From assembly GCF_003382685.1 (NCBI RefSeq), contig NZ_KZ859514.1, positions 12,864 to 76,863 on the forward strand: 64,000 nt of DNA, read 5' to 3'. Positions 3,117-32,519 of the stretch are shown here, in pieces. Position 1 is the stretch's first letter, and every line of letters begins with the position of its first letter. This stretch comes from Halorussus litoreus (lineage in GTDB: Archaea > Halobacteriota > Halobacteria > Halobacteriales > Haladaptataceae). Below the pieces are notes generated by a model. That model saw only the letters and a list, made by a program, of their open reading frames with translations, was not told the DNA's origin and did no database searches. The position numbers and the translations under genes are program-made.

Positions 3117-4175
3117 ATGACCTCGGACGACCTGCGGATGACCATGGAACAGGTGGGCGAGCGATTCGACCTCGGAGAGTACGAGATCGAGGCGTACCTC
3201 ACAGTGCTCGAACACGGCAACCTCACCGCCAGCGAGATCGCCGACCGGACCGACATTCCCCAGCCGCGGGTGTACGACACGGTGCGGAGCCTGAGCGACC
3301 GCGGGCTCGTCGAACTCCGGGAGTCCCGGCCGATGAAGGTCATCGCGGTCGACCCCGACGAGGCGTTCTCGGGCATCCAGTCGTCGCTGATGGACATGGT
3401 TTCGGAACTGGAGGCGCGCTACACCGCGCCCGCCCGGGACACCGAGGCCGTCTCGCTCGTCAAGTCCCGCTCGACCATCCTGCGGTACCTCGAAGACGTG
3501 ATCGACGAGGCCGAGTACGAGATCGTGCTGTCGCTGACGCCCGACCTGCTGGCGCGGTTCCGCGAGGAGCTCTCGGCCGCCATCGACGACGGCGTCAGCG
3601 TCGAACTGCTGGTCACGCCCGCCGCGGACGCGCCCGATCCGGCGGAGTTCGACTACCTCGACGTGGCGACGACCGCCCGCGCGCGCCGGGGCATCACCAC
3701 GCCGGTCATCGCGGTCGCCGACGGCGAGTACTCCATTTACGCCACGCAGGACGCGCTGCGGGACGACGAGGACCGCTACGGCGTCATCTTCAACCGCTCG
3801 GCGCTCGGGTTCCTCGTCTCGGGATTCTTCGGCACGGTGCTGTGGACTACCGCCGAGCGCACCCTCGCGGCCGACGGCGAGGACCGCCCGTTCCCCCGCC
3901 GGTACGCTTCCATCCGGCGCTGCGTGAAGGAGCTCCAGGAGCTCGAAGGCGACTTCTACGCCACCATCGAGGGCCGGGACATCGAGACCGGCGACTCGTG
4001 GGTCGTCGAGGGGTCGGTCGTCGGCTTCTCGTTCGAGGGCGGCGAGCGCGTCGCCGGGATGACCATCGAGACCGAGGAGGTCGGCGAGGTCACGGTCGGC
4101 GGGCAGGTGGCCGCGCTGGAGGACATCGAGGCCCACGAGATCCGCGTCGGTCGCGGGAGCCCGCCGAAACGCTAA
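3117..4175 (+). CDS. TrmB-family transcriptional regulator
   Basis: The 352-residue protein has the two-part TrmB layout. A winged helix-turn-helix occupies about residues 15-75 ([20 protein letters not shown], then [13 protein letters not shown]), followed by a short coiled coil and a PLD-like sugar-sensing domain from about 105 to 345. TrmB proteins bind DNA when effector sugar is absent and control sugar ABC transporters and central carbon genes. Its position at the head of a locus with a sulfatase, a sugar ABC transporter and a Gfo/Idh/MocA dehydrogenase suggests it is the local regulator; that is inference. The start is supported by the TATA box and leaderless spacing. Confidence 0.9.
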
Positions 4176-4438: not shown

Positions 4439-5881
4439 ATGACCGACCGACCCGACGTCCTGCTGTTGTTGACCGATCAGGAACGCTACGACGTCAGCGC
4501 GCCGGACGGACCCGCCGTCGAGACGCCGACGATGGACCGACTCCAGCGGGAGGGCGTCCGATTCGCCGACGCGTACACGCCGATAGGCATCTGTTCGAGC
4601 GCCCGCGCCTCGCTTCTGACGGGACTGTACCCCCACAACCACGGGATGCTGAACAACTGTCACGAACCCGACGCGATCCGGTGGAACCTCCCGCGCGAAC
4701 ACGACACGTTCGGCGAACTGCTCGCCGACGCCGGCTACGACAACAGCTACGCCGGCAAGTGGCACGTCGGCCGCGACCAGCGCCCGGAGGACTTCGGGTT
4801 CACCACGCTGGCCCGCGAGGGGCCGCCCTCCGGCACCGACGAGTTCAGGGAACACCAGCGCGAGCACGGCGTCGACCCCGACGCGATAGCACTCGAAGAC
4901 GCTATCTACGCCGACTACGGCGACGACGACCTCCTCGTGTCCGCGAAGACTCCCGTGCCGAAGGAGGCGACACTGACCTACTACCTCGCCGAGGTCACCG
5001 TCGAGCGACTGGAGGCGGCCGCGTCGAGCGACAGTCCGTTCTTCCACCGGACGGACTTCCCCGGTCCCCACCACCCCTACGTCGTACCTGAACCGTACGC
5101 CTCGATGTACGACCCGGCCGAGATAGAGCGGTGGGGCAACTACGCCGAGACCTTCGACGGCAAGCCCTACGTCCACGAGCAACACGTCGCCTATCGTGGC
5201 GTCGAAGACTTCGACTGGGAGACGTGGTCGCGTGCGGTGAGCAACTACTTCGGATTCGTCACCTTCGTCGACGAGCAGATGGGCCGCGTCCTCGACGCGA
5301 TGGACCGACTCGGCCTCGCCGACGATACCGTCGTCGTTCACACCGCCGACCACGGTGACTTCACTGGGAGCCATCGCCAGTTCAACAAGGGGCCGATGAT
5401 GTACGAGGAAGTGTATCACGTCCCCATGATGGTCCGCTGGCCCGACGCGGTCGAGGGCGGACGCACCGTCGAGGAGTTCGTTCGTCTACATGACCTGATG
5501 CCGACCTTCTGCGAACTCGCCGGGGTCGAACCGCCCGCCGACCTCGACGCGCGGACCCTCGTCCCGATACTGGAGGGTGATTCACCGGACGACTGGCCCG
5601 AGAGTCTCTTCGCGGAGTACCACGGCGACGAGTTCGGCCTCTACAGCCAGCGGATGGTCCGGAAAGGCGAGTATAAACTGGTGTACAATGCGTTTGACAC
5701 CGACGAACTGTACGACCTCGGGGACGATCCGGGGGAACTTCAGAATCTCGTCGAGCACCCGGAGTACCGCGATACGTATCGGGAACTGCGGGCTGAGCTG
5801 GGCGATTGGATGGAACGAACCGACGACCCCATCAACCCGTGGACCCGGACGGTGCTCGACAAGTCACCCCCGTCGCGGTGA
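4439..5881 (+). CDS. sulfatase (alkaline phosphatase superfamily)
   Basis: The 480-residue enzyme has the type I sulfatase architecture and would hydrolyse sulfate esters. Metal ligands are visible at the start (LLTDQERYD), in the helix after the active-site loop (TGLYPHNHGML), and in the second half (TADHGDFTGSHRQFNKGPMM). The formylglycine site is C52-S-S-A-R56: the residue two after Cys is Ser, where the usual motif has Pro or Ala, so conversion or activity is uncertain. No signal peptide is present, so the enzyme is probably cytoplasmic and acts on imported substrate. A purine-rich stretch near 4425-4431 may serve as ribosome binding site. It lies between the TrmB regulator and the sugar ABC operon on the same strand. 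Confidence 0.88.
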   Translation: MTDRPDVLLLLTDQERYDVSAPDGPAVETPTMDRLQREGVRFADAYTPIGICSSARASLLTGLYPHNHGMLNNCHEPDAIRWNLPREHDTFGELLADAGYDNSYAGKWHVGRDQRPEDFGFTTLAREGPPSGTDEFREHQREHGVDPDAIALEDAIYADYGDDDLLVSAKTPVPKEATLTYYLAEVTVERLEAAASSDSPFFHRTDFPGPHHPYVVPEPYASMYDPAEIERWGNYAETFDGKPYVHEQHVAYRGVEDFDWETWSRAVSNYFGFVTFVDEQMGRVLDAMDRLGLADDTVVVHTADHGDFTGSHRQFNKGPMMYEEVYHVPMMVRWPDAVEGGRTVEEFVRLHDLMPTFCELAGVEPPADLDARTLVPILEGDSPDDWPESLFAEYHGDEFGLYSQRMVRKGEYKLVYNAFDTDELYDLGDDPGELQNLVEHPEYRDTYRELRAELGDWMERTDDPINPWTRTVLDKSPPSR

Positions 5882-19508: not shown

Positions 19509-19620
19509 GGTCGTTCGAGCTCTCGAACTAACAGTCTCGCTCCAACCGCCAGTTTTCTCTGAGCCACACAGGCCGATACGCCCTGTCAATTAACGTAGCA
19601 GAAGATAGAACTAAAGAAAA

Positions 19621-19634
19621 AGTATATAAAATAA
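19621..19634 (+). promoter_or_regulatory. TATA box of lonB
   Basis: AGTATATAAAATAA sits in a 50-base AT-rich island, centred about 32-34 bases before the lonB ATG at 19660. Confidence 0.65.
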
Positions 19635-19659
19635 ACGGGAGAGTAGTATCCCAAGGTTA

Positions 19660-21669
19660 ATGACCGAACTGTCAGACTCCGACGCCTCCTCGGAAGCGGA
19701 GGCGCGCGACGAGGGAGACCCGGATCACGGGCGACTCGGAAGCGAAGTCGAGGCCGAGGTCGTCGACGACGTCGATCCGGACGACCCCCTGGGTGGACTC
19801 GACATCGAAAGCACCGCCGACATCGAGATTCCCGACCGGCTGGTCGATCAGGTCATCGGGCAGGACCACGCGCGGAAGATCGTGCTCAAGGCGGCCGAAC
19901 AGCGCCGGCACGTGATGATGATCGGCGCGCCCGGCACCGGGAAGTCGATGCTGGCGAAGGCGATGAGTCGCCTGCTTCCCGAAGAGGATCTCGAGGACGT
20001 GATCGTCTACCACAATCCGGAGGACAGCAACGAACCCGAGATCCGAACGGTGCCGGCCGGCGAGGGCAGCGAGGTCGTCGAGGAGCACCGCAAGCGGGCG
20101 AGCAAGCGCCAGCAGGTCCGCAAGAACGTGATGTGGGTCGTCATCGCCGCGATCGCGGTGTACTCGCTCTTCTTCGCCGGCGAACCGCTGCTGGGGATCA
20201 TCGCGGCGGGCGTCATCTATCTGGCGTTCCGCTACGGCACCTCGGACGTCGAGGCCGAGATTCCGAAACTGCTGGTCGACCACGCCGACCAGACCACTGC
20301 GCCGTTCGAGGACGCGACGGGTGCCCACGCCGGCGCGCTGCTCGGCGACGTGCGCCACGACCCGTTCCAGTCGGGCGACATGAGCACGCCGAGTCACAAC
20401 CGCGTGGAGGCGGGTGCCATCCACAAGGCGAACAAGGGCGTCCTCTTCCTCGACGAGATCAACACGCTCGACATCCGGTCCCAGCAGAAGCTGATGACTG
20501 CGATCCAGGAGGGCGAGTTCTCCATCACCGGCCAGTCCGAGCGCAGTTCCGGCGCGATGGTCCAGACTCAGCCGGTGCCCTGCGACTTCGTCATGATCGC
20601 GGCGGGCAACGTCGACGCGATGGAGAACATCCATCCAGCGCTCCGAAGCCGGATCAAGGGGTACGGCTACGAGGTGTTCATGGACGACACCATCGAGGAC
20701 ACTCCGGAGATGCGCCGGAAGTACGCCCGCTTCGTCGCCCAGGAGGTCGAGAACGACGGCCGCCTCCCGCACTTCGACGAGGAGGGGGTCGAGGAGGTCC
20801 TGCTCGAAGCCCAGCGTCGCGCGGGCCGGCAGGACCACCTCTCGCTCAAGCTCCGCGATCTCGGCGGGCTCGTCCGCGTGGCTGGCGACATCGCTCGCGG
20901 GGAGGACGCCGAGTTCACCAGCCGCGACCACGTCCTGCTGGCGAAACAGCGCTCGCGCTCCATCGAACAGCAGATCGCCGACGACTTCATCGAGCGCCGA
21001 AAGGACTACGAACTCACCGTCAGCGACGGCGACGTGGTCGGCCGGGTCAACGGCCTCGCCGTGATGGGCGACGACAGCGGCGTGATGCTCCCCGTGATGG
21101 CCGAGGTGACCCCGGCGCAGGGCGGCAGCGAGATCGTCGCAACCGGCCAGTTGAAGGAGATGGCCGAGGAGTCCATCCAGAACGTCTCGGCCATCATCAA
21201 GAAGTACAGCGACGAGGACCTCACCGAGAAGGACCTGCACGTCCAGTTCGTGCAGGTGGGCAACCAGGGCGTCGACGGGGCCTCGGCGTCCATCACGGTC
21301 GCGACCGCCATCATCTCCGCGCTGGAGGAGGTCCCCATCGCGCAGGACCTCGCGATGACGGGCTCGCTGTCGGTCCGGGGCGACGTGCTCCCGGTCAGCG
21401 GTGTCACGCACAAGATCGAGGCCGCCGCGAAAGCCGGCATCGAACGGGTCGTCATCCCCGACGCCAACGAGGAGGACGTGATGATCGAAGAGGAGTACGA
21501 GGAGCAGGTCGAGATCGTCCCCGTCTCGCACATCAGCGACGTGATCGAGGTCGCGCTCGCAGGAGAACCGGACGACAGCGGTCTCGCCGACCGGCTGAAG
21601 CGCGTCGCGCAGGGCACGTTCGACGAGGACTCGGAGGCCGGCGGGAAACCCAGTCCGACGCCGCAGTAG
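19660..21669 (+). CDS. lonB: archaeal membrane-anchored ATP-dependent protease LonB
   Basis: The 669-residue LonB degrades regulatory and misfolded proteins at the membrane and is essential in haloarchaea that have been tested. An acidic N-terminus leads to the AAA+ domain: Walker A GAPGTGKS (89-96) and Walker B VLFLDEIN (261-268). Two membrane helices (about 156-191) are inserted in the ATPase domain, the archaeal LonB hallmark. The C-terminal protease domain has the catalytic Ser in VDGASAS (S542) and the Lys in SGVTHKIEAA (K585). An acidic tail follows. It is preceded by a strong AT-rich promoter. Confidence 0.96.
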   Translation: MTELSDSDASSEAEARDEGDPDHGRLGSEVEAEVVDDVDPDDPLGGLDIESTADIEIPDRLVDQVIGQDHARKIVLKAAEQRRHVMMIGAPGTGKSMLAKAMSRLLPEEDLEDVIVYHNPEDSNEPEIRTVPAGEGSEVVEEHRKRASKRQQVRKNVMWVVIAAIAVYSLFFAGEPLLGIIAAGVIYLAFRYGTSDVEAEIPKLLVDHADQTTAPFEDATGAHAGALLGDVRHDPFQSGDMSTPSHNRVEAGAIHKANKGVLFLDEINTLDIRSQQKLMTAIQEGEFSITGQSERSSGAMVQTQPVPCDFVMIAAGNVDAMENIHPALRSRIKGYGYEVFMDDTIEDTPEMRRKYARFVAQEVENDGRLPHFDEEGVEEVLLEAQRRAGRQDHLSLKLRDLGGLVRVAGDIARGEDAEFTSRDHVLLAKQRSRSIEQQIADDFIERRKDYELTVSDGDVVGRVNGLAVMGDDSGVMLPVMAEVTPAQGGSEIVATGQLKEMAEESIQNVSAIIKKYSDEDLTEKDLHVQFVQVGNQGVDGASASITVATAIISALEEVPIAQDLAMTGSLSVRGDVLPVSGVTHKIEAAAKAGIERVVIPDANEEDVMIEEEYEEQVEIVPVSHISDVIEVALAGEPDDSGLADRLKRVAQGTFDEDSEAGGKPSPTPQ

Positions 21670-21778
21670 CCAAAACCGCCACCTGAGTAACGCGACTTCG
21701 CCGTTCCGATTCTGGTTTTCTATCACACACTTCGAGAGTATCGGAAACCATTTGAACCGGTGGAGATATCTCTCCGTC

Positions 21779-22432
21779 ATGCAACGACGAACGTTCGTCG
21801 CAGGGGTGGCAGGTGCGACGGCCGCCCTCTCGGGCTGCATCTCGACCCTGAACGACTTTCGAACGGCGTCCCGGAGCGGGAGTCGCACGTACGACGTCGA
21901 CGCTGGAACGAGCCTCCACGTCCTGAATCGAACCGGCTCTGTGACCGCCGAGCGTCACGACGGCGAGACGGTGACCCTCGACTTCGAGATCGAGGGACCG
22001 TCGAGCGACGCGGTCGAGGCGGTGTCGGTGACCGACTCACACGAGGACGGCGAGCTACAACTCGAAGTCGAGCCCGGCGACTCGTCGGCCGACCGCGACA
22101 CCAGCGTCTCGATGACTGTTCAGTACCCAGACAGCGTGTTCGTGAGTCGGCTGCGGACGCGAAGCGGGTCGATAGACGCAGACGTGTCCGGTATCGAAGA
22201 CGGTGCCGAGATCGAGAGCACGAACGGGAGCGTCGACGCCGCGCTCGCCTCGGGCCTCGACGCGGCGGTGACCGCCACGACGACCAACGGGTCGGTGACC
22301 GTCCACGATCTCGAACTGGATTCGTCCTCGACCTCCGCCACGGAAGTGTCGGGGACGCTGGGTGACGGCTCGAAGTCACTCACCCTTCGGACCGAGAACG
22401 GCTCGATAGACCTGCGAGCGCTGTCGGACTGA
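21779..22432 (+). CDS. Tat-exported DUF4097 lipoprotein
   Basis: The 217-residue protein starts MQRRTFVAGVAGATAALSGC: a twin-arginine signal ending in an LSGC lipobox, so it is probably a lipid-anchored surface protein. The rest is a DUF4097-type beta-solenoid with repeats such as RTRSGSIDADV, ESTNGSVDAAL, TTTNGSVTVHDL and RTENGSIDLRAL. The repeating NGS also offers N-glycosylation sites. The ATG at 21779 gives the compact signal; a TTG nine codons upstream is less likely. It lies just before the lanthipeptide precursor genes but points toward them, so it is not in their operon. Confidence 0.82.
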   Translation: MQRRTFVAGVAGATAALSGCISTLNDFRTASRSGSRTYDVDAGTSLHVLNRTGSVTAERHDGETVTLDFEIEGPSSDAVEAVSVTDSHEDGELQLEVEPGDSSADRDTSVSMTVQYPDSVFVSRLRTRSGSIDADVSGIEDGAEIESTNGSVDAALASGLDAAVTATTTNGSVTVHDLELDSSSTSATEVSGTLGDGSKSLTLRTENGSIDLRALSD

Positions 22433-22512
22433 ATCGGTGCCGGCGGTCAGTCGAGAAGGTACGAGGAGTGCAAGTCAGTTTCGACCCCAGGTTCGGGCAC
22501 TACTCGGGTAAC

Positions 22513-22686
22513 TCAGTTGCAGGGGTCGTCGCCGCACCACTGCGAGCACATACAGGTACACGAGCAGTCTAAGCTCCAGATACCCGTGATTTTCTCGGTG
22601 TGCTCCTCGAAGCGCTCGTCGAAGACGCCCTTGATCTCGGTTTCCGCGTTGTACGCCATGCCGAAGGATGTCTGATTCGTGGACAT
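22513..22686 (-). CDS. lanthipeptide precursor 1
   Basis: The 57-residue peptide has leader MSTNQTSFGMAYNAETEIKG followed by VFDERFEEHTEKITGI, then the Cys-rich end WSLDCSCTCMCSQWCGDDPCN (split here: WSLDCSCTCM, CSQWCGDDPCN). There are 6 Cys in the last 17 residues. The leader is nearly the same as in precursors 2-5, while the C-terminus has diverged. The AT-rich ATTTATTTTTATTTATT at 22711-22727 lies 25-41 bases upstream and can serve as its promoter. It is the most distal precursor from the LanM gene. Confidence 0.8.
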   Translation of the reverse strand: MSTNQTSFGMAYNAETEIKGVFDERFEEHTEKITGIWSLDCSCTCMCSQWCGDDPCN

Positions 22687-22851
22687 CACCGAGAAGTGTA
22701 TCCTGCAACCATTTATTTTTATTTATTAGTTTATATAGAAAAATAAACACTGCTAATCACGCCGGTAGTTCGGGTGTGGGATCTGCGAACCGACGCAACT
22801 GTCTCTGGTCGTGGACAGCCTCGGGTCGAAAAAATCGGGAACGGGTCGGTT

Positions 22852-23028
22852 CTAACAGCCGCAGGAGCAACCGTTACAGTCGCCCGAGCAGAGACAGGAG
22901 TCCGTACAGCTCAGGCTCCAGATGCCGGCGGCCTTCTCGGTGTACTCCTCGAAGCGCTCGTCGAAGACGCCCTTGATCTCGGTTTCTGCGTTGTACGCCA
23001 TGCCGAAGGATGTCTGATTCGTGGACAT
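22852..23028 (-). CDS. lanthipeptide precursor 2
   Basis: The 58-residue peptide has the same leader as precursor 1 (MSTNQTSFGMAYNAETEIKG) and core WSLSCTDSCLCSGDC plus NGCSCGC. It differs from precursor 3 by one residue (AAGI against AAGV) and one silent base, so the two arose by very recent duplication. The core offers Ser/Thr for dehydration and seven Cys. A promoter element with AGTATAGAAAAGTATAAG (minus strand) lies 26-45 bases upstream. Confidence 0.85.
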   Translation of the reverse strand: MSTNQTSFGMAYNAETEIKGVFDERFEEYTEKAAGIWSLSCTDSCLCSGDCNGCSCGC

Positions 23029-23053
23029 CAACGAAAAAATACTGCCATGCAGA

Positions 23054-23073
23054 CTTATACTTTTCTATACTTA
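23054..23073 (-). promoter_or_regulatory. promoter of precursor 2
   Basis: The minus-strand reading AGTATAGAAAAGTATAAG ends about 26 bases before the ATG at 23028. The same arrangement (AGTATAGAAAACTACAAGTA) precedes precursor 3, and a variant (GTGTAGAAAAATACAAAT) precedes precursor 4. Confidence 0.6.
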
Positions 23074-23194
23074 GCTAATAATTATATACTAAATAGTATA
23101 AATAAAGTGCTCCTTCAGACGTTGTGTCTGTCGGTGACGCATCTATCACCGGTGGTCGATATTCTCACGCCAAAAAATCGGGAACGGGTCGGTT

Positions 23195-23371
23195 CTAACA
23201 GCCGCAGGAGCAACCGTTACAGTCGCCCGAGCAGAGACAGGAGTCCGTACAGCTCAGGCTCCAGACGCCGGCGGCCTTCTCGGTGTACTCCTCGAAGCGC
23301 TCGTCGAAGACGCCCTTGATCTCGGTTTCCGCGTTGTACGCCATGCCGAAGGATGTCTGATTCGTGGACAT
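23195..23371 (-). CDS. lanthipeptide precursor 3
   Basis: The 58-residue peptide is a near-copy of precursor 2. The duplication includes about 25 bases downstream of the stop (AATCGGGAACGGGTCGG), whereas the 5' flank differs apart from the promoter motif. The ATG at 23371 is used because it aligns with the other six genes; an upstream in-frame ATG at 23395 would overlap the promoter. Confidence 0.85.
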   Translation of the reverse strand: MSTNQTSFGMAYNAETEIKGVFDERFEEYTEKAAGVWSLSCTDSCLCSGDCNGCSCGC

Positions 23372-23392
23372 CGAGAAAAACATAGTCCTATT

Positions 23393-23415
23393 CATACTTG
23401 TAGTTTTCTATACTT
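23393..23415 (-). promoter_or_regulatory. promoter of precursor 3
   Basis: The minus strand reads AGTATAGAAAACTACAAGTA, with CAAGTATG 22-29 bases before the ATG at 23371. It is shared with precursors 2 and 4. Confidence 0.6.
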
Positions 23416-23625
23416 GGATTATATTTATATTTCTATCTCTTAAATAATTACACTGTCAGAGACGGAAATACGCGTGTGGTCTGCTCTTTTCACCAGTCGG
23501 CAGTCGAACGAAGTCCTCGAAAGCCTTTGGCGTGGTCATGCGAGTCGCGGGGGCCGGAGTGGTCCGCGGTCGTTCGGAGAACTGACTTCAGTTCCAGCCC
23601 CGTCCTCGGACGCTACCGAGACCGT

Positions 23626-23802
23626 TCAGTAGCAGTTAGAGGTGTCGCAGTCACCGGTCGAGCAAAGGCAGGAGCCCGTACAGCTAAAGCTCCAGATGTC
23701 GGCCATTTTGCCGGTGTACTTCTCGAAACGCTCGTCGAAGACGCCCTTTATATCATTTTCCGCCTCGTGCGTCATGCCGAAGGATGTCTGATCGGTGGAC
23801 AT
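23626..23802 (-). CDS. lanthipeptide precursor 4
   Basis: The 58-residue peptide has leader MSTDQTSFGMTHEAENDIKG then VFDERFEKYTGKMADI, and core WSFSCTGSCLCSTGD plus CDTSNCY. It keeps the C-T/S-x-S/T-C-L-C-S pattern of the others, but ends CDTSNCY instead of the CSCGC tail. A TATA-like element lies at 23826-23834, 24-32 bases upstream, within a long AT-rich tract. Confidence 0.82.
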   Translation of the reverse strand: MSTDQTSFGMTHEAENDIKGVFDERFEKYTGKMADIWSFSCTGSCLCSTGDCDTSNCY

Positions 23803-23921
23803 CGAGAAGAAATAACTGCGTTAGGATTTGTATTTTTCTACACGAAATTTATATTATATTTTATATATATTAAACTATTATGTGTTATAAACGAGAAAGA
23901 CACGTAGGTACGCCGTTCTTT

Positions 23922-24101
23922 TCAGTAGTTGGCATACGGGTCGCAGTCGACAGTCGTCGAGCAGAGACAGGTGTCCGTACAGCCAAGGGTCCAGGTGCCA
24001 GCGATTTTCTCGGTGTACTCCTCGAAGCGCTCGTCGAAGACGCCCTTGATCTCGGTTTCCGCGTTGTACGCCATGCCGAAGGATGTCTGATCGTGTGTCA
24101 T
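23922..24101 (-). CDS. lanthipeptide precursor 5
   Basis: The 59-residue peptide begins MTHDQTSFGMAYNAETEIKG, followed by VFDERFEEYTEKIAGT, and has core WTLGCTDTCLCSTTVD plus CDPYANY. It has only four Cys but several Thr, the best Thr-to-Cys balance of the set. Only 62 bases separate its start from the end of precursor 6, and its own promoter is weak (GATAAACTA near 24136), so it may be read from the precursor 6 promoter. Confidence 0.82.
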   Translation of the reverse strand: MTHDQTSFGMAYNAETEIKGVFDERFEEYTEKIAGTWTLGCTDTCLCSTTVDCDPYANY

Positions 24102-24163
24102 CGTGAGAAGTGCCTTACCGCTACCTACTGGCTTTCGATAAACTAGCGTCGGGGTTGTTCAGT

Positions 24164-24340
24164 TCAGCAACAGCAGGAACAACCGTTGCAGCCGAACGAG
24201 CAGATACACGAGCAGGAGAAGCCGAAGTCGAACGTGTCCGGCACTGCGTCGCTCTCGAAGAGACGGTCGAGTTGCGTCTTGAGTTCACTGTCGGTGGTGC
24301 TGTGCGTCATGCCGAAGGTGGAAGTCTGAGTTGCTGACAT
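24164..24340 (-). CDS. lanthipeptide precursor 6 (second leader type)
   Basis: The 58-residue peptide has a different leader, MSATQTSTFGMTHSTTDSEL then KTQLDRLFESDAVPD, but keeps the QTS(T)FGM start motif. The core is FGFSCSCICSFGCNGCSCCC, with eight Cys and four Ser. The ATG at 24340 aligns with precursor 7; an ATG ten codons upstream overlaps the promoter. A TATA box CTTATAATTT (plus strand) lies at 24367-24376, 27-36 bases upstream. Confidence 0.82.
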   Translation of the reverse strand: MSATQTSTFGMTHSTTDSELKTQLDRLFESDAVPDTFDFGFSCSCICSFGCNGCSCCC

Positions 24341-24601
24341 CCGAGAATGCTTTTCTCCGATAGTCACTTATAATTTACCTTTATATTTAATTATACAACA
24401 TGAATTGTACTCGTATCCGAATCGGGACGACGAGCGGTCTATCGGTCCACGGTTCGACGCGGCTGCGTGGCGGTGTCGCGCTTCCCCAGTGACGCCGAAA
24501 AAACGGTACTGGTCGGCTGCGAATCGCTCGGAACTGCCGAACTGTGGGTCGCTTGGAACTGTGAATCACTCGAAACCGGCGTTGGTCCCGAGTTCAGTTC
24601 C
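24341..24601. other. gap between precursors 6 and 7
   Basis: The first 60 bases are the AT-rich promoter of precursor 6. The remaining roughly 200 bases are of normal GC content and I see no gene or repeat in them; a decayed precursor is possible but no leader motif remains. Confidence 0.4.
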
Positions 24602-24790
24602 TCAGCAACCGCAGGAACAGCCGTCGCAGGCGATGTTCGTGCAGAGGCACGAACCGGTACACCAACCGCTCCACTCGACGGTGTGGACGTCGCCGAGGTC
24701 CACGTCGAACTTCTCGTCGAACAACTGCTTGAGGCTACTGTCACTGGTACTGTGCTGCATGCCGAACGTCGATGTCTGAGTAACGGACAT
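24602..24790 (-). CDS. lanthipeptide precursor 7 (second leader type)
   Basis: The 62-residue peptide has leader MSVTQTSTFGMQHSTSDSSL then KQLFDEKFDVDLGDVHTV, and core EWSGWCTGSCLCTNIAC plus DGCSCGC. The core keeps W-S-x-x-C-T-x-S-C-L-C-T. It is nearest to the exporter genes; the ABC permease ends 85 bases upstream on the same strand. A TATA-like CCTTATATTTC at 24814-24824 lies 24-34 bases before the ATG. Confidence 0.82.
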   Translation of the reverse strand: MSVTQTSTFGMQHSTSDSSLKQLFDEKFDVDLGDVHTVEWSGWCTGSCLCTNIACDGCSCGC

Positions 24791-24874
24791 CAGAACGGAC
24801 GTACAGGCGCTTCCCTTATATTTCTACTGCTAGGATAGAAAAATTTTGTCTCGTGGGTGCTGTCGTTCGGGGGT

Positions 24875-25735
24875 TCAGTAGTGGCCCATCACCCCACGCC
24901 TGCGTGCGACGCGCGAGCAGACGAGAAACACCGCATATCCGGCGAGCGAGTAGACTGCGGCCACTCCGACGAGTATCCCCAGATCGAACGCCGGGAACTC
25001 CCACAGCCGGACGCCGTTGCGCATCGCGTCCTGGAGCATCGACGAGCCCTGAACCAGCGGGAGGAATCGCAACGGGGACAAGCCCGCCACCGGTGCCGCG
25101 ATGAGGCCGACGATGACGAACTGCATGAGCTGCGAGACGCTCTCGACGCGCTTGTACACGAGCGCGAGCCCGGCGAACACGAAGCCGATGCCGACCACCG
25201 ACACGAGCGCCAGCAAGGTGACGGGGACGATGGTCAGAACGTCGATGGCGAGCGTCCGCTGGGTCGTCAGCAGTATCAGCCCGAGCATCAACGCGCCGAC
25301 GAGGAAGCTCTGGAAGATGTTGACGACGACCTTCGTGACCATCACCGGCCCGAAGCCGTACGGCGACATGTACAGCTGTTCGAGCGTCCCCCATTCGGAC
25401 TCCTGCGTGACGTTGCCCGGCAGGCTGGAGTACGCCGACTGGGCCATGGTGTAGAGGAACCAGCCCACGATGACGCCGTCGAGCGTCTCGGTGATGGCCT
25501 GATTCCCGCCGACGCTGCCGACCGCGGCCTGTCCGCCGAAGAACAGCACCGCGAAAAACAGGTACGAGGCCAGCATCTGCGCGAGGAAGTTCACCCGGTA
25601 GCGGAGCATGATGCGGAACCGTTTGATGAACAGCTCGCGCAACAGCGTGAGTCCGCCAGCGAGCGACAGGTCCGCACTATCCGATCGGCCCGTGCTATCG
25701 TCGGCTGCCGACGCGGTCTTTCTGGTGTTGCTCAT
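24875..25735 (-). CDS. ABC-2 type permease, lanthipeptide cluster exporter 1
   Basis: This 286-residue membrane protein has six helices in the ABC-2 layout, starting near residues 50-70 and ending with GYAVFLVCSRVARRRG. It contains the amphipathic VTQESEWGTLEQLYMSPYG segment typical of these permeases. Its start overlaps the ATPase stop by 4 bases (ATGA), so the two form one transporter. Located between the precursor genes and the divergent promoter, it probably exports the peptides or provides self-protection; neither is shown by sequence. Confidence 0.88.
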   Translation of the reverse strand: MSNTRKTASAADDSTGRSDSADLSLAGGLTLLRELFIKRFRIMLRYRVNFLAQMLASYLFFAVLFFGGQAAVGSVGGNQAITETLDGVIVGWFLYTMAQSAYSSLPGNVTQESEWGTLEQLYMSPYGFGPVMVTKVVVNIFQSFLVGALMLGLILLTTQRTLAIDVLTIVPVTLLALVSVVGIGFVFAGLALVYKRVESVSQLMQFVIVGLIAAPVAGLSPLRFLPLVQGSSMLQDAMRNGVRLWEFPAFDLGILVGVAAVYSLAGYAVFLVCSRVARRRGVMGHY

Positions 25736-26814
25736 GGGTTCGTCGCTCGTGAAACCGTCTCCGTTTTCCGCTCGGTCGCTTTCCGGTCGCGTTCGTTGGC
25801 GTCCTCGTCGTCGGTGATCTTGAGGAACACCTCCTCGAGATCGGGTTCGACGGCGTCGAACGACTCGACCGACAGGTCCGCCGAGCGCAACTCGTCGACC
25901 AGTTCGTAGAACTCGTCGGTCGTGACGCTCACCTCGAAGCGGGTCGCGTTGGGGAGGCGCTCGAAGTTGTCGGCGTCGAACGTCGACTCGAGTCGGTCGC
26001 GGATCGACGCGTCGAGGCGCTCGGTGACACTCACCTCGTACACCTGCGTGTTGAACAGGCTCAGGAGGTTCTCGACCGTGTCGTCGGCCACGATGTGCCC
26101 CTCGTTCATGATGATGACGCGGTCGCAGACGTCCTCGATGACGTCCATGTCGTGGCTCGACAGCAATACTGTCGTGCCCTCGTCCTCGACGAGGTTTCGG
26201 AGTTCCGAGCGCAGGTCGAGCGAGCTCTCGACGTCGAGGCCGAGCGTCGGCTCGTCGAAGAACACCACGTCGGCGTCCCGAGCCATGGTGCAGGCCAGCG
26301 ACACCTTCTGTTTCTGGCCGCGCGAGAGCTCTCGAACGACCGTGTCGGCCTTCCCCTCGAGGCCGAACTGCGTGACGAGTTCGTCGTGACGGTCGCCCAT
26401 CTCGCGGGGGTCGTTGCCGGCCAGCGCCGAGAAGAACTGCATGTTCTCCTTGACGGTGAGCCGCCAGTAGATGTTGCGAGCGCCCTCCAGGGTCGCACCC
26501 ATCCGCCGATAGGCGACACCCGGCTCGTCGTGAACGTCGATGTCGTCGACCCGAACCTGCCCGGAAGTCGGGACGATGAGTGACAGCAACGACTTGATGG
26601 TCGTGGTCTTGCCCGCGCCGTTCGGACCGAGCAGGCCGACCGCGGTCCCCGGCTCGACCTCGAAGTCGACGCCGTCGACCGCTCGAACCGCCTCGTCGCC
26701 GCTTCCGTACTCCTTCGAGAGGTTCTCCACGGCGATCGCCGGCTCGCCGTCTCCTGACCGGTCCCGATTCGGAGAGGACTCGACCCCGTCCGGCGGCTTG
26801 GATGTGGTTCCCAT
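25732..26814 (-). CDS. ABC transporter ATPase, lanthipeptide cluster exporter 1
   Basis: The 360-residue ATPase belongs to the CcmA/BcrA group that pairs with ABC-2 permeases. Motifs: Walker A GPNGAGKTTT, Q-loop region YRRMGATLEGARNIY, signature LSRGQKQKVSLACTM (Ser-Arg-Gly instead of Ser-Gly-Gly), Walker B VVFFDEPTLGLD and switch His in LLSSHDMDV. A C-terminal domain of about 110 residues follows and may touch the substrate. The ATG at 26814 is chosen because a TATA box lies 25-35 bases upstream; ATGs at 26838 and 26829 would overlap or crowd it. Confidence 0.9.
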   Translation of the reverse strand: MGTTSKPPDGVESSPNRDRSGDGEPAIAVENLSKEYGSGDEAVRAVDGVDFEVEPGTAVGLLGPNGAGKTTTIKSLLSLIVPTSGQVRVDDIDVHDEPGVAYRRMGATLEGARNIYWRLTVKENMQFFSALAGNDPREMGDRHDELVTQFGLEGKADTVVRELSRGQKQKVSLACTMARDADVVFFDEPTLGLDVESSLDLRSELRNLVEDEGTTVLLSSHDMDVIEDVCDRVIIMNEGHIVADDTVENLLSLFNTQVYEVSVTERLDASIRDRLESTFDADNFERLPNATRFEVSVTTDEFYELVDELRSADLSVESFDAVEPDLEEVFLKITDDEDANERDRKATERKTETVSRATNP

Positions 26815-26838
26815 TGTATGTGCGCCCATACGACGCAT

Positions 26839-26849
26839 CGTATAATAAC
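26839..26849 (-). promoter_or_regulatory. promoter of exporter 1 arm
   Basis: GTTATTATACG on the minus strand, 25-35 bases before the ATG at 26814. It is part of a 150-base AT-rich divergent promoter region between the two arms of the cluster. Confidence 0.6.
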
Positions 26850-26949
26850 TATTCGGTTTAAAATATAAAACTGAAAATTAGAATATAACTACCGCAGGTG
26901 AACGGGAGTTTCGTGACGGCCGAACGGGGTCCATTAGTCGTCCGAAACG

Positions 26950-26990
26950 AATTATTTTACAATAAGTACTGAATGGGTAAAGTTAAATGA
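26950..26990 (+). promoter_or_regulatory. promoter region of exporter 2 arm
   Basis: The AT-rich boxes are ATTATTTTACAATAAG at 26951-26966 and AAGTTAAATGAATAG at 26980-26994. The second is about 25-30 bases before the ATG at 27012 and is the better TATA candidate for a leaderless transcript. Confidence 0.5.
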
Positions 26991-27011
26991 ATAGGGCTGG
27001 GAGAGTGGGAC

Positions 27012-28034
27012 ATGGCCGCCATCGAAACGAACGGGTTGACCAAGGTGTTCGGCGACTCCGTCGTCGCCGTCGAGGACCTCGACCTCGAAGTCGAGCAGGG
27101 CGAGGTGTACGGGTTCCTCGGACACAACGGAGCCGGGAAGTCGACGACAATCGACATCCTCCTCGACTTCCTGCACCCGACCGACGGTAGCGCAAGCGTG
27201 CTGGGACACGATACGCGAGAGGAGTCGCTCGCCATCCGCGAGCGGGTCGGCGTCCTGCCGGAAGGGGCGAAGCTGTACGACCGACTCACCGGGCGCGAGC
27301 ACATCGAGTTCGCGATGGAGATCAAAGGCGTCGACGGCGATCCCGACGACATCTTCGAGCGAGTCGGGCTCGACCGCGACGACGCCGACCGGACGGTCGG
27401 CGAGTACTCGAAGGGGATGTGCCAGCGCCTCGGCCTCGGCATGGCGCTGGTCGGTGACCCCGACCTGCTCATCCTCGACGAACCCTCCTCGGGGCTCGAC
27501 CCGACCGGGATGAGCGAGATGCGCGACCTCATCCGCGAGGAGGCCGACGACGGCACCGCGGTGTTCTTCTCGAGTCACCTCCTCACGGAGGTCGAAGCGG
27601 TCTGCGACCGGATCGGTATCCTCAGCGACGGGAAACTCGTCGCGCAGGACAGCATCGAGGTGCTCCGCGAGCGGTTCGGCGGCGAGGCAACGATAGAGGT
27701 GACTGTCGACGCGGTGCCCGACGACGGATTCGATCTGGAGACCGTCGACGGCGTGCTCGGGTCGACGGTCGACCCCGAGGAAGACACCGTCGTCGTCGAG
27801 TGCGAGGACTCGACGGTGCGGGGCGACGTGGTCCAGCGGGTCGGCGAGGCCGCGACCATCATCGACATCGTCTCGGAGGAAGCTTCGCTGGAGTCGATGT
27901 TCGAGGAGTACGTCCGGAACGGAACCGGCGAGGAACTCGCGGGGGGCGATCTCGACTCCGAGAGCGCCGACGGGTCGACCAAGAGCGAAGAATCAGCGAG
28001 TAGCAACGGGTCGGAGACGGAGGTGGCCCGATGA
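27012..28034 (+). CDS. ABC transporter ATPase, lanthipeptide cluster exporter 2
   Basis: The 340-residue ATPase has Walker A GHNGAGKSTT, Q-loop-region GVLPEGAKLYDRL, a signature YSKGMCQRLGLGMAL, Walker B LLILDEPSSGLD and switch His in FFSSHLLTEV. The last 40 residues are acidic and Ser-rich. It belongs to the same family as the exporter 1 ATPase but is clearly a separate lineage. Its stop overlaps the permease start by 4 bases. It heads the plus-strand arm that ends with the LanM gene. Confidence 0.9.
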   Translation: MAAIETNGLTKVFGDSVVAVEDLDLEVEQGEVYGFLGHNGAGKSTTIDILLDFLHPTDGSASVLGHDTREESLAIRERVGVLPEGAKLYDRLTGREHIEFAMEIKGVDGDPDDIFERVGLDRDDADRTVGEYSKGMCQRLGLGMALVGDPDLLILDEPSSGLDPTGMSEMRDLIREEADDGTAVFFSSHLLTEVEAVCDRIGILSDGKLVAQDSIEVLRERFGGEATIEVTVDAVPDDGFDLETVDGVLGSTVDPEEDTVVVECEDSTVRGDVVQRVGEAATIIDIVSEEASLESMFEEYVRNGTGEELAGGDLDSESADGSTKSEESASSNGSETEVAR

Positions 28035-28876
28035 ACTGGCTCACCATCGCGAAGAAGGACTTCCGCGACGCCCGCCGGTCGAAGATCCTGTGGGGCGCGC
28101 TGCTCATCTTCAACGTGTTCATCGTTGCGGTGCTGGGAACCAACTCGACCGACCCCGGCGGCCCGTACTCGGCCGCGCAGGTCGGCATGTCCACGATGGT
28201 CGGGGTCGGGATGTTCTTCCTCCCGCTCATCATGCTGGTCATCGCGTACCTCTCGATCACCGGCGAGCAGGAGTCGGGTAGCATCAAGTACCTTCTCGGC
28301 CTGCCGAACACGCGGCTCGACGTACTCGTCGGCAAGCTCGTCGGCCGAACTGCGGTCGCGATGCTCGGCATCGGCGTCGCGCTCGTCGTCGGCGCGCTCA
28401 TCATGTCCGTTCGGTTCGACGAGGTGCCGGTCGGCCAGTACGCCGGGTTCAGCCTGATGATACTCTACTTCACGGCGGTGTACGTCGCCATCGCGGTCGG
28501 CGTCTCCGCGCTGTGTCGCACCCGCGCTCGGGCGCTGGCCGGAACGCTCGGCGTCTACTTCGTGTTCAGCGTGCTCTGGATCTTCCCTTCGTTCAACCCA
28601 CAGACCGCCGTCTCGTACGTGGTCGAGGATCTGCTCGGCCTCGCGGCGATGCCGCGGCTGTACGACCTCATCCTCCACCTCAGCCCGTCGTACGCCTTCT
28701 CCATCGCGAACTACGAACTCGTGCTCGACATGACCCGCGGCGGTTACATGGGCACGTACGTCGACGGCTTCCCGTTCTACCTGCAGGGATGGTTCATGCT
28801 CGTCATCCTGCTCGCGTGGTTCGTCGCCCCGCTGGCCATCGGGTACGCGCGCTTCCGCAAGGCCGAGTTGAGCTAA
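28031..28876 (+). CDS. ABC-2 type permease, lanthipeptide cluster exporter 2
   Basis: This 281-residue permease has six membrane helices, an N-terminal MNWLTIAKKDFRDARRSKIL elbow and the ITGEQESGSIKYLLGLPNTR motif typical of the NosY/ABC-2 group. It is coupled to the preceding ATPase gene. With exporter 1 the cluster thus has two ABC-2 systems; in bacterial lantibiotic clusters such pairs usually give immunity, and export uses a peptidase-containing LanT, which is absent here. Confidence 0.88.
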   Translation: MNWLTIAKKDFRDARRSKILWGALLIFNVFIVAVLGTNSTDPGGPYSAAQVGMSTMVGVGMFFLPLIMLVIAYLSITGEQESGSIKYLLGLPNTRLDVLVGKLVGRTAVAMLGIGVALVVGALIMSVRFDEVPVGQYAGFSLMILYFTAVYVAIAVGVSALCRTRARALAGTLGVYFVFSVLWIFPSFNPQTAVSYVVEDLLGLAAMPRLYDLILHLSPSYAFSIANYELVLDMTRGGYMGTYVDGFPFYLQGWFMLVILLAWFVAPLAIGYARFRKAELS

Positions 28877-28987
28877 CTTGAGTTGAGTCGACCTCCGGAC
28901 CGCTGTCTTGGTCGCCGCGTGCGGCCCTCGCGAACGCGTCGTACGGCGGTAAGAACGCCGCCACGTGACGGGAAGCTATTCAAAACG

Positions 28988-28998
28988 CTTATTTAATT
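28988..28998 (+). promoter_or_regulatory. TATA box upstream of lanM
   Basis: CTTATTTAATT lies about 115 bases before the LanM ATG, implying a leader of roughly 90 bases, unusual among the mostly leaderless genes here. The leader contains a small inverted repeat (GAGAGCCGCGGTTCTC, near 29082-29097) just before the start. Confidence 0.45.
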
Positions 28999-29109
28999 AG
29001 TTGGTATAGAGTCACTCACCGATATGATTAGAGATTATTGTTCGAAAGAAACGGGAGAAATGGGCGTGACCGAACGGCTTCGAGAGCCGCGGTTCTCTGC
29101 TAACGACAG

Positions 29110-32100
29110 ATGACCACCGTATTCAGCGAGGACCACAAGCGCCTCATCGCCGGGCGGGCTCGCACGCTGTTCGAACGATTCGAGGATCCCGAGGCCGTCG
29201 AACACGGCTTCCGCGACGAGGAGGAGGTCACGGAGATCTTCGAGGAGTGGGAGGAGACGTTCTCGACCGAGGAGTCGTTCGAGCGACGGCTGGATCAGCT
29301 CGACGCGACCGAGGCGGAGTGTCGGCAGGCCATCAGCGCCGACAGGCTCGCCGAGTCCGAACCCATCCCTGAGTGGGTCGACCGGCTCGACGATCTCGTC
29401 GCGTCGGTCCACCGGACCACTCCGGAGAAGGCCGCCGAGCGACTCGGCCCTGAGGGCTATCGGGTCGAGGAAGAGCGAACGTTCAAGCAGCTGTCGGCGG
29501 CCATCGCGGCCCACGCGTGCGACCAGCTCGACGAGTCCGTGCTCGACGTGCTCTCGGCGGAGGCCGTCTGGACGATGGCCGACTGGTTCCGCCGCCGGCT
29601 CGAAGACCGGTTCGTGCGCATCCTGTTCGTGGAGTTCAAAGCGTTCATCGCGGCCCACGACGAGGACATGGCGTTCGCCGAGCCCGAGGACTTCGACGAC
29701 GGCGACCTGCCGACCGACTACTACGAGCTGTTCCTCGGCTACCTGTTCGACGGCGGCTTCGGCGACCTCTGCCAGGAGTACCCGATGTTCGCTCGACTCG
29801 TCGTGACCCAGATCCGCCAGTGGCACGAGCATCTTGAAGAGTTCGGTCGCCGCCTCGAAGCCGACCGGGACGCGCTCGCCGACCGGTTCGGCTACGAGAC
29901 GGGCGTCGGCAACGTGACCCACCTCGAACCGCTGGCCGACGACACCCACGGCGACGGCCGCGCGGTGATGCACGTCGAGTTCGAGTCGGGGCTCGACGTG
30001 GCGTACAAGCCCCGGAGCGTCGAAGCCGGCCAGACGTTCTACCGGATGCTCGAACGGTTCAACGACCACCTCGCGGTCCCCGACTTCAAGACGCCGACCT
30101 ACCTGCCGCGGGGCGACTACGGCTGGATGGAGTGGATCGAGTACGAGGAGTGCGAGGATAGCGACGCGGTCGAACGCTACTACCAGCGAGCCGGGGCGCT
30201 CGCGTCGCTGGCGTACTTCCTCGAGTTCACCGACTGCCAGTACGAGAACGTCATCATCAACGGCGAGTACCCGATGCTGGTCGACGCCGAGACCATCTTC
30301 ACGCCCCACGTCAGCGTCGAGCGCAAGCCGACCCGGACCGGCATCGGCTCGCTCCGGGACAAGAGCCTCCTGCTGACGCTGCTGATCCCCTACGACGTCG
30401 AGGACATGCACACCGACCAGAGCGGCGGCCAGTCGAGCACGATCTCCGGGTTCAGTGACTCGGCCGACGAGGACGTGCTCGAGGACATCACCAATCCCGC
30501 GATCCAGGCGGTCAACACCGACGTGATGAAGGTCGACCACCAGCCGGTGCCGGTCGACCCCAGCGAGAACATCCCGATGGTCGACGGCGAGGCCCAACCC
30601 CCGGCCGACTACCTCGAGGAGTTCCTCGACGGCTTCGAGACAGCCTACGAGACCGTGATGGAGCTGCGCGACACGGGACAGCTCACCGACGACGTCGAAC
30701 TGTTCGACAGCTTCCGGTCGGTCGAGAACCGCATCGTCTACCGACCGACGATGCAGTACGGCAGCGTCATCAAGTCGCTGTCCTCGCGGCATTGTCTCGG
30801 CGACGGGGCGAGATTCGGCGTCGAGATCGACGAGTTGAGCGTCCCGTTCTGCAACGGCATCATCACCGAGCCGAAGCCGTGGGCGCTGTACGACGCCGAG
30901 CGGGTGGCGCTCAAACGACTCGACCCACCGCGGTTCACCTGCCGGCCCGACGACACCGAACTCGAACTTAACGGGGAGACGCTCGGCGTCGAAGCCGACG
31001 AGTCGGGGATGGAGCGCGCTCGCCAGCGCATCGAGTCGGCGTCGGAAGACGACCTCCAGATGCAGATCGAGTTCGTCCGGGGCTGTTTCGGCGTCACGCC
31101 CGACGCGAAGCAGGACGGCAACCGGCCGCCGGACGTCGAGCCCGAGCCAGCTACCGACGAGGCGTTCCACGAGGAAGCGGTCGCGCTGTTCGAGGACCTG
31201 CGCGAGTCGGCGCTCGAAGGCGTGAACGGCGGCTACTACTGGGCGTCGGTCGCGCCGTGGACCGAGACAGAGCGGCTCACGCTCCGGCCGGCCGGCGGGT
31301 CGATGTACTCCGGACGGAGTGGCATCGCGCTCCTCGGCGCGGGGCTGTATCACCTCACCGGCGAAGACCGCTACCGATCGTTCGCGCTGGACGCGGTCCA
31401 GGGCATCCGGCAGGCGGTGCGGCTCGAACTGCCGATGCCGTCGCTCACCAACCACGGCGGCGCGACCGGCATCGGCTCGGTCGCGTACGGGCTCAGCCTC
31501 GTCGGCGACCTCGCGGACGAGCCCGAGATCTACGACGACGTGCGCCAGCTACCGAACTTCTTCACGGACGAGGCGCTCGAAGCCGACGACACGTACGACG
31601 CGACCGCGGGCTCGGCCGGAACCGTCCTCGGACTGCTCGGCGCGCACGACCGGGTTGGCGGTGACGAACTGCTGTCGGCCGCGCGGGACTGCGGCGACTA
31701 CCTGCTCGACAACCGCGTCGAGACCGACGACGGCGTCCGCGTCTGGCAGACCCTCGAAGACTGCCCGCCGATGGCCGGCTTCGCCCACGGCGTCAGCGGC
31801 ATCGCGTACGTGCTGCTCCGACTCTGGAACGTGACTGGCGAGACGAAGTACCGCGACGCAGCGCTGGAGGCGCTGGAGTTCGAGGACGCCCAGTACTCAG
31901 AGTCGGCGCAGAACTGGCCGGATCCCCGCGGCTGGTCGGAGACGGAGTTCCTCGACCAGTGGTGTTACGGCCGGAGCGGCATCGGCCTCGCCCGGCTCGG
32001 GATGACCGAGTACACGACCGACGACCGCGTCACGCGCGGACTCGAACGAGCGGTCGACGGGTTCCCGAACGACGGCATCGACCGCTTCGACCACGTCTGC

Positions 32101-32349
32101 TGTGGCGAGGCTGGTCGGTCGGCGTTCCTGCTCGAAGCCGAGCAGCGCCGGGGCGACCGCTCGGGGGAAGCTCGCGAGCGACTCGGCGCGGTCCTCGACC
32201 GCAAGCGCGAGGCCGGCATCTACCAGACGCTCGCGCACACCGACAAGATCGACGACCCGACGTTCTTCCACGGCACCGCCGGCATCGGCTACTCGATGCT
32301 GCGCGTGACTGCGCCCGACGAACTGCCGAGCGTGCTCCTCTGGGAGTGA
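29110..32349 (+). CDS. lanM: class II lanthipeptide synthetase LanM
   Basis: The 1079-residue bifunctional enzyme would dehydrate Ser/Thr of the precursor cores and close thioether rings with Cys. The N-terminal dehydratase (DUF4135, to about residue 680) shows the kinase-like active-site motifs: YKPRSVEAGQTFYRML, DYGWMEWIE, DCQYENVI (D375, N380) and MLVDAETIF. The LanC-type cyclase from about 700 has the zinc ligands C952 (WCYG), C997 and C998 (VCCGEAG), and HGTAGIGY with H1054. The CCG motif, instead of CHG, gives three Cys ligands as in ProcM-type enzymes. Length is normal for LanM. No other biosynthetic enzyme is nearby, so it probably serves all seven precursors. Confidence 0.95.
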   Translation: MTTVFSEDHKRLIAGRARTLFERFEDPEAVEHGFRDEEEVTEIFEEWEETFSTEESFERRLDQLDATEAECRQAISADRLAESEPIPEWVDRLDDLVASVHRTTPEKAAERLGPEGYRVEEERTFKQLSAAIAAHACDQLDESVLDVLSAEAVWTMADWFRRRLEDRFVRILFVEFKAFIAAHDEDMAFAEPEDFDDGDLPTDYYELFLGYLFDGGFGDLCQEYPMFARLVVTQIRQWHEHLEEFGRRLEADRDALADRFGYETGVGNVTHLEPLADDTHGDGRAVMHVEFESGLDVAYKPRSVEAGQTFYRMLERFNDHLAVPDFKTPTYLPRGDYGWMEWIEYEECEDSDAVERYYQRAGALASLAYFLEFTDCQYENVIINGEYPMLVDAETIFTPHVSVERKPTRTGIGSLRDKSLLLTLLIPYDVEDMHTDQSGGQSSTISGFSDSADEDVLEDITNPAIQAVNTDVMKVDHQPVPVDPSENIPMVDGEAQPPADYLEEFLDGFETAYETVMELRDTGQLTDDVELFDSFRSVENRIVYRPTMQYGSVIKSLSSRHCLGDGARFGVEIDELSVPFCNGIITEPKPWALYDAERVALKRLDPPRFTCRPDDTELELNGETLGVEADESGMERARQRIESASEDDLQMQIEFVRGCFGVTPDAKQDGNRPPDVEPEPATDEAFHEEAVALFEDLRESALEGVNGGYYWASVAPWTETERLTLRPAGGSMYSGRSGIALLGAGLYHLTGEDRYRSFALDAVQGIRQAVRLELPMPSLTNHGGATGIGSVAYGLSLVGDLADEPEIYDDVRQLPNFFTDEALEADDTYDATAGSAGTVLGLLGAHDRVGGDELLSAARDCGDYLLDNRVETDDGVRVWQTLEDCPPMAGFAHGVSGIAYVLLRLWNVTGETKYRDAALEALEFEDAQYSESAQNWPDPRGWSETEFLDQWCYGRSGIGLARLGMTEYTTDDRVTRGLERAVDGFPNDGIDRFDHVCCGEAGRSAFLLEAEQRRGDRSGEARERLGAVLDRKREAGIYQTLAHTDKIDDPTFFHGTAGIGYSMLRVTAPDELPSVLLWE

Positions 32350-32383
32350 CGCCGGCGAACGCGTTCTTTTCGGAGTGACGACC

Positions 32384-32436
32384 GGCTGATCGGCTCTCGC
32401 TCGCCTCCGGTGGAGGCGAACGAGAGCCGATCAGCC
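32384..32436. terminator. long hairpin between lanM and sdhA
   Basis: Two 25-base arms with one mismatch are separated by GGT (arms begin GGCTGATCGGCTCTCG and end CGAGAGCCGATCAGCC). It lies between the converging stop codons of lanM and sdhA and could terminate both transcripts. From about 32443 to 32515 a degenerate tandem repeat of GAATCGAGAACCGAAAA units follows. Confidence 0.6.
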
Positions 32437-32519
32437 AAAAGCGAAGAATCGAGAACAGAGAATCGAGAGCCGAAAACCGAGAACCGAAAACCCGATACCA
32501 GAATCGAGGACGAGGCCGC

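What the first reader, a model, noticed from the sequence alone, without database searches (positions are those of the whole stretch)
22513..32349. Class II lanthipeptide cluster in a haloarchaeon with seven precursor genes
A LanM synthetase with intact dehydratase and cyclase motifs is encoded beside two ABC-2 transporters and seven small genes whose products end in Cys/Ser/Thr-rich segments. All seven share a QTS(T)FGM leader start. Layout is two divergent arms: exporter 1 plus precursors on minus, exporter 2 plus LanM on plus. Archaeal lanthipeptides have been reported, but a set of seven diverging precursors with a single LanM is remarkable and this exact set may be undescribed.
Basis: partly seen in the sequence, partly recalled or inferred. 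Interest (0 to 1): 0.95.

Follow-up and report, generated by a model that had tools for sequence, protein, structure and literature searches.

The report
Multi-peptide lanthipeptide cluster in Halorussus
This salt-loving archaeon carries one predicted peptide-cyclising enzyme beside seven small peptide genes, with an eighth elsewhere in the genome, whose recognition ends match and whose product ends differ; such clusters are known in haloarchaea, but this is the largest set seen in this survey.

Summary
Seven LanA-like genes (57-62 aa, all with Q-T-S-[T]-F-G-M), two ABC-2 exporters and a full-length LanM lie where stated. The class II lanthipeptide reading is well supported by genomics, with no chemistry. 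Relatives of these precursors occur in 6 of 394 sampled genomes, all LanM-positive and all near the LanM. They share K..FD..F with archaeal precursors whose products are published.

Corrections: A2 and A3 encode the same core, so there are six distinct cores locally. An eighth precursor lies alone on another contig. The genome has a second, archalan-beta-type LanM. Cleavage sites and protease are unknown.

Additions: the cluster sits in a ~13 kb block missing from the same junction in five other Halorussus. Its closest relative is a five-precursor cluster on Halobiforma lacisalsi plasmid pHLAJ5I. Leaders are near identical while cores diverge (A1/A2: 93% versus 56% nucleotide identity). The LanM has the ProcM-type CCG zinc motif, as do most archaeal LanMs.

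Novelty: a new member of a known kind. Published surveys count ~350 archaeal LanAs for ~110 LanMs, and the family may be the published 'halobiforcins', a paper I could not read. Seven plus one is the largest set found here.

The parts
22513..22686 (-). LanA A1, 57 aa, core ~WSLDCSCTCMCSQWCGDDPCN
22852..23028 (-). LanA A2, 58 aa, core ~WSLSCTDSCLCSGDCNGCSCGC
23195..23371 (-). LanA A3, 58 aa, same core as A2 (recent tandem duplicate)
23626..23802 (-). LanA A4, 58 aa, core ~WSFSCTGSCLCSTGDCDTSNCY
23922..24101 (-). LanA A5, 59 aa, core ~WTLGCTDTCLCSTTVDCDPYANY
24164..24340 (-). LanA A6, 58 aa, more divergent leader (QTSTFGM), core ~FSCSCICSFGCNGCSCCC
24602..24790 (-). LanA A7, 62 aa, divergent leader (QTSTFGM), core ~WSGWCTGSCLCTNIACDGCSCGC
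24875..25735 (-). ABC-2 permease (exporter A)
   Evidence: weak PF12698 match (30.8 bits, just under the cut-off); orthologue beside LanM in H. lacisalsi, Halocatena, G120, Halostagnicola
25732..26838 (-). ABC ATPase (exporter A)
   Evidence: PF00005; conserved with its permease
27012..28034 (+). ABC ATPase (exporter B)
   Evidence: PF00005; orthologous pair in H. lacisalsi and G120
28031..28876 (+). ABC-2 permease (exporter B)
   Evidence: PF12679 154 bits; 50% identical in H. lacisalsi
29110..32349 (+). LanM class II lanthipeptide synthetase, 1079 aa, CCG-type cyclase
   Evidence: TIGR03897 735 bits; PF13575+PF05147; motifs; LicM2/CylM homology
21779..22432 (+). DUF4097 (toastrack) protein, possible accessory gene; a DUF4097 gene also flanks the precursors in H. 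lacisalsi
   Evidence: the longest in-frame start is 21752 (TTG)
19660..21669 (+). second, divergent LonB protease gene inside the inserted block; role in the pathway unproven
   Evidence: 75% identical to the housekeeping copy on C6, which is 93-95% identical to other Halorussus
19532..32519 (.). inserted block absent from the same junction in five other Halorussus genomes (gene 18827 and sdhA adjacent there)

Best explanation
A class II lanthipeptide cluster that works on a one-enzyme, many-substrates plan. The LanM binds the shared leader (QTSFGM...K..FD..F), phosphorylates and eliminates Ser/Thr in the variable Cys-rich tails, and closes thioether rings with its CCG-type zinc cyclase. An unidentified protease removes the leader, since no C39/LanT peptidase domain was found among the exporter proteins scanned and no double-Gly site is apparent. 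One or both ABC-2 exporters export the products or protect the producer. Precursors multiply by tandem duplication while leaders stay matched to the LanM and cores diverge. Shown: genes, motifs, homology, co-occurrence, mosaic divergence, insertion. Inferred: modification, ring pattern, export, cleavage, activity (probably against related haloarchaea).
For: LanM family score and domains; LicM2/CylM homology; catalytic and zinc motifs; precursor family confined to LanM-positive genomes; at least one precursor near LanM in each; shared K..FD..F leader motif with precursors carrying the published archalan-alpha and larlan cores; both exporters conserved in H. lacisalsi and G120; leader/core mosaic; eighth in-trans precursor whose CTDSCLC core motif matches A2/A3. 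CCG LanMs process many substrates in published cases (PMC10027976, PMC11667668).
Against: No chemistry. No enzyme from this LanM clade was recognised as characterised here; the ones I could place fall in other clades. No leader protease was identified. Cores hold more Cys than most need, so disulfides or unmodified Cys are possible. CCG is near universal in archaeal LanMs, including ones with a single local precursor, so it does not by itself show promiscuity.
Confidence: 0.88

Rival explanations
1. The LanM modifies only some of the seven precursors; the divergent A6/A7 or the in-trans copy are relics or are served by the second (C16) LanM.
For: A6, A7 and the trans copy have the most divergent leaders; a second LanM exists.
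Against: A6/A7 keep QTSTFGM and intact Cys-rich tails with no stops; the C16 LanM has its own archalan-beta-like precursor with a different leader; the H. lacisalsi cluster also mixes leader subtypes.
Confidence: 0.3
2. The small genes are Cys-rich metal-binding or secreted peptides that lie beside LanM by chance and are not its substrates.
For: High Cys content; Cys often outnumber Ser/Thr in the tail.
Against: Confined to LanM-positive genomes and linked to LanM in several families; leader motif shared with precursors of published archaeal lanthipeptides; conserved leader with variable core.
Confidence: 0.04
3. The cluster is silent or degenerate (no product made).
For: Published heterologous work found several haloarchaeal clusters silent in their native hosts (PMC12144867).
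Against: All reading frames intact; dN below dS in every leader pair; AT-rich promoter-like sequence before most precursors.
Confidence: 0.2

Closest known systems
Halobiforma lacisalsi AJ5 plasmid pHLAJ5I LanM cluster (probably the 'halobiforcins' of Castro et al. 2021; that paper could not be read here)
   Same: LanM 56-57% identical and sister in the tree (99/98); five precursors, four of them found with the window's profile, all with an FGM leader motif; both exporters; a DUF4097 neighbour
   Different: Five precursors with different cores; plasmid-borne; different gene order and orientation
Archalans, larlans, medlans, sallans, pellan (proven archaeal class II lanthipeptides; PMC10105419, PMC12144867)
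   Same: Haloarchaeal CCG-type LanM; short acidic leader, with [FY]D..[FY] in several; short core; no dedicated leader protease proven in the lar pathway
   Different: One or two precursors found near these LanMs here; LanMs in other clades; leaders lack QTSFGM; cores less Cys-rich
Prochlorosins/synechococsins (ProcM, SyncM) in picocyanobacteria
   Same: One CCG LanM serving many precursors with conserved leader and variable core, some encoded away from the enzyme gene
   Different: Nif11-type leader with double-Gly site, 29-80 precursors; no close LanM relationship; promiscuity is tested there and only inferred here

Membership tests
Class II lanthipeptide synthetase (LanM) | DUF4135 dehydratase domain fused to LanC-like cyclase, score above curated cut-off | tested here: met
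   TIGR03897 735 vs 304 bits; PF13575 329 bits; PF05147 170 bits
Class II lanthipeptide synthetase (LanM) | Dehydratase catalytic residues (DxH, YKPR Lys, DxHxxEN, DxE) | tested here: met
   DTH, YKPR, DCQYEN (His to Gln), DAE; Gln or Ser also in LanMs beside published larlan and sallan cores
Class II lanthipeptide synthetase (LanM) | Zinc ligands and catalytic His of the cyclase | tested here: met
   AHG, WCYG, CCG
Class II lanthipeptide (product) | Dehydrated Ser/Thr and (methyl)lanthionine rings in the peptide | not testable with these tools
   needs mass spectrometry
Class II LanA precursors | Small ORFs near LanM with conserved leader and Ser/Thr/Cys core | tested here: met
Class II LanA precursors | Double-Gly leader cleavage site with C39-bearing LanT (bacterial class II) | tested here: not met
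   no GG/GA site with a matching C39 domain: none reported in the exporter proteins and no double-Gly before the cores (sequence); leader proteolysis is unexplained in published archaeal clusters too
ProcM-type promiscuous system | CCG zinc motif | tested here: met
   but near universal among archaeal LanMs
ProcM-type promiscuous system | One enzyme modifies many precursors, including ones encoded in trans | tested here: inconclusive
   seven local plus one distant precursor; no assay
Halobiforcins (Castro 2021) | Precursor sequence family as published | not testable with these tools
   paper not held; inferred from the genus of the nearest relative

The most novel reading that the evidence does not exclude
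An archaeal counterpart of the prochlorosin system: one substrate-tolerant LanM, carried on an inserted block, makes at least seven different polycyclic peptides from eight precursors, including one encoded elsewhere in the genome, with cores diversifying while duplicated leaders stay homogenised.
Probability: 0.45. Interest if true: 0.6.

Novelty: new member of a known kind. Interest (0 to 1): 0.45.

Why it matters
If one haloarchaeal LanM really processes eight precursors, it gives a salt-tolerant promiscuous cyclase with a ready-made natural substrate library, useful for testing how leader recognition permits core diversity in Archaea and for making cyclic peptide libraries. It also suggests that haloarchaeal antagonism may use blends of peptides acquired on mobile blocks.

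Tried and rejected
First genome-contig scan with the single LanM found nothing; repeated with an alignment. AlphaFold2 of LanM from eight sequences gave pLDDT 51, pTM 0.39, so it was not used for fold searches. Sigma-70-type promoter and terminator scan is uninformative for an archaeon; a simple TATA-like scoring gave no consistent position across the seven. PHROGs gave no viral link. Paper searches for the peptide strings QTSFGM and CTDSCLC found nothing, and Castro 2021 and Makarova 2019 are not held. DUF4097 as a general cluster partner: found convincingly only in H. lacisalsi among the relatives scanned. LonB as a cluster partner: not near LanM in eight relatives. No exact direct repeat of 9 bases or more joins the two ends of the inserted block. 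Weak precursor hits in G086 and G234 (E about 0.007-0.009) treated as chance. Metallothionein-like or coincidental Cys-rich genes rejected on linkage to LanM.

Full report
Observation. Translation of the minus strand gives seven ORFs of 57-62 aa at 22513-24790, each starting M(S/T)xxQTS(T)FGM and ending in a Cys/Ser/Thr-rich tail. Q5-T6-S7-F8-G9-M10, K19, D23, F26 and four Cys are invariant. The flanking genes are a permease/ATPase pair on minus (24875-26838), an ATPase/permease pair on plus (27012-28876) and a 1079-aa LanM (29110-32349). The finding's coordinates are right.

Seven genes, six cores. A2 and A3 differ by one leader residue and have identical cores over 22 codons. The repeat unit of about 259 bases includes promoter and downstream sequence, so the family grows by tandem duplication. 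A whole-genome profile search found exactly one more member, on contig C13 (103387, plus strand), MSETQTSDELTDGTRTDIKAMFDEAFETESLPEINCSLSATGGCTDSCLCW. No LanM match lies on that contig, and its CTDSCLC matches the A2/A3 core.

Leader versus core. For A1/A2 the leader is 93% identical in DNA and the core 56%; A1/A5 90% and 59%. Synonymous as well as non-synonymous differences are higher in the core (A1/A2 dS 0.21 leader, 1.44 core). Stronger selection on leader protein sequence alone would not raise synonymous divergence in the core, so leader homogenisation by gene conversion or swapping of core segments is likely (inference; the segments are short and dS values rough, and the leader/core boundary at the Trp is a working one). 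In every leader pair dN is below dS.

Are they LanM substrates? A profile of nine precursors found relatives in 6 of 394 sampled genomes of the order at E<1e-5, all among the 41 genomes with a LanM match. Hypergeometric p is 9.0e-7, or 8.5e-5 leaving out the two genomes that supplied profile sequences. A class-level draw gave the same six. In each of the six, at least one precursor lies near LanM. Proven archaeal precursors share the short leader motif: archalan alpha KEQYDSEF and larlan KASYDQQF beside window KGVFDERF.

The enzyme. LanM aligns with LicM2 (E 3.5e-86) and CylM (1.3e-51). DxH, YKPR, DxE and the cyclase AHG/WCYG/CCG are present. The His of DxHxxEN is Gln; Gln and Ser also occur in the LanMs next to precursors with published larlan (L131) and sallan (L044) cores, so this position varies in enzymes tied to known products. 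CCG rather than CHG at the zinc site is the ProcM-type motif linked to promiscuity (PMC10027976, which also reports CCG LanMs in Halorussus). Because it is near universal in archaeal LanMs, including those with a single local precursor, it permits but does not show promiscuity.

Relatives. The genus is Halorussus: genome G014 carries precursors with the published archalan alpha, beta, gamma and sallan cores of Halorussus salinus YJ-37-H. The window LanM is sister to that of Halobiforma lacisalsi AJ5 plasmid pHLAJ5I (56% identity, support 99/98). That plasmid cluster has three FGM-type precursors on one side and two on the other, both orthologous exporters and a DUF4097 gene. Halocatena salina (plasmid), G120 and G300 have smaller sets of one or two. 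Across the loci scanned with a leader-motif filter, the window set is the largest (that filter misses leaders of other types).

Mobility. In five other Halorussus genomes sdhA lies next to the homologues of window genes 18827, 16363 (four of five) and 14962. In the window the block 19532-32519 separates gene 18827 from sdhA. The block includes a second LonB, 75% identical to the C6 copy, which is 93-95% identical to other Halorussus LonBs. Whether lonB2 and DUF4097 serve the pathway is unknown; lonB is not near LanM in the eight relatives checked.

Mechanism (inferred). Leader docking, phosphorylation/elimination of Ser/Thr, thioether closure, removal of the leader by an unknown protease, export or immunity by two ABC-2 exporters. 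No double-Gly site is evident and no C39 domain was reported in the exporter proteins, so bacterial-type LanT processing is unlikely. In the lar cluster, co-expression of precursor and LanM alone gave a trace of mature product, which its authors attribute to generic host peptidases (PMC12144867).

Novelty. Archaeal class II lanthipeptides are known and structurally proven, with 353 LanAs for 110 LanMs catalogued (PMC12144867). 'Halobiforcins' are a named family (PMC10105419 citing Castro 2021); I could not read their sequences. The exact peptides were not found in the full-text library, which does not cover supplements. I rate it a new member of a known kind, with an unusually large precursor set.

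Noticed in passing
L125 6800-10042 with 3652-3840 and 3927-4088 (Halostagnicola sp. A-GB9-2, also L134); L126 7597-10899 with 4533-4703 and 4805-4966: LanMs in which all three cyclase zinc Cys are replaced (WSYG; SDG/ADG) lie by two conserved Thr-rich precursors each, one without Cys (TTWTTVTTTTTTGTVD/GTAD), one ending SCSC, plus exporter A. This suggests a dehydration-only, dehydrobutyrine-rich product.
   Followed up: partly
L120 (G179), L121 (G252), L138 (Halobacteriales archaeon QS_1_68_20): Other archaeal LanMs with partly or fully changed zinc-ligand motifs; L121 also reads YSPR for YKPR.
   Followed up: no
L037 7370-7543 (G000:C13): The lone eighth precursor lies about 95 bases from the end of a convergent gene whose N-terminus resembles oligoendopeptidase F (my reading, not searched).
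   Followed up: no
L038 6871-10519 (G000:C16): Second LanM of the same genome, with a precursor ending PSASMFATELCCGLSG like archalan beta.
   Followed up: partly
window 19660-21669: Second, divergent LonB gene inside the inserted block.
   Followed up: partly
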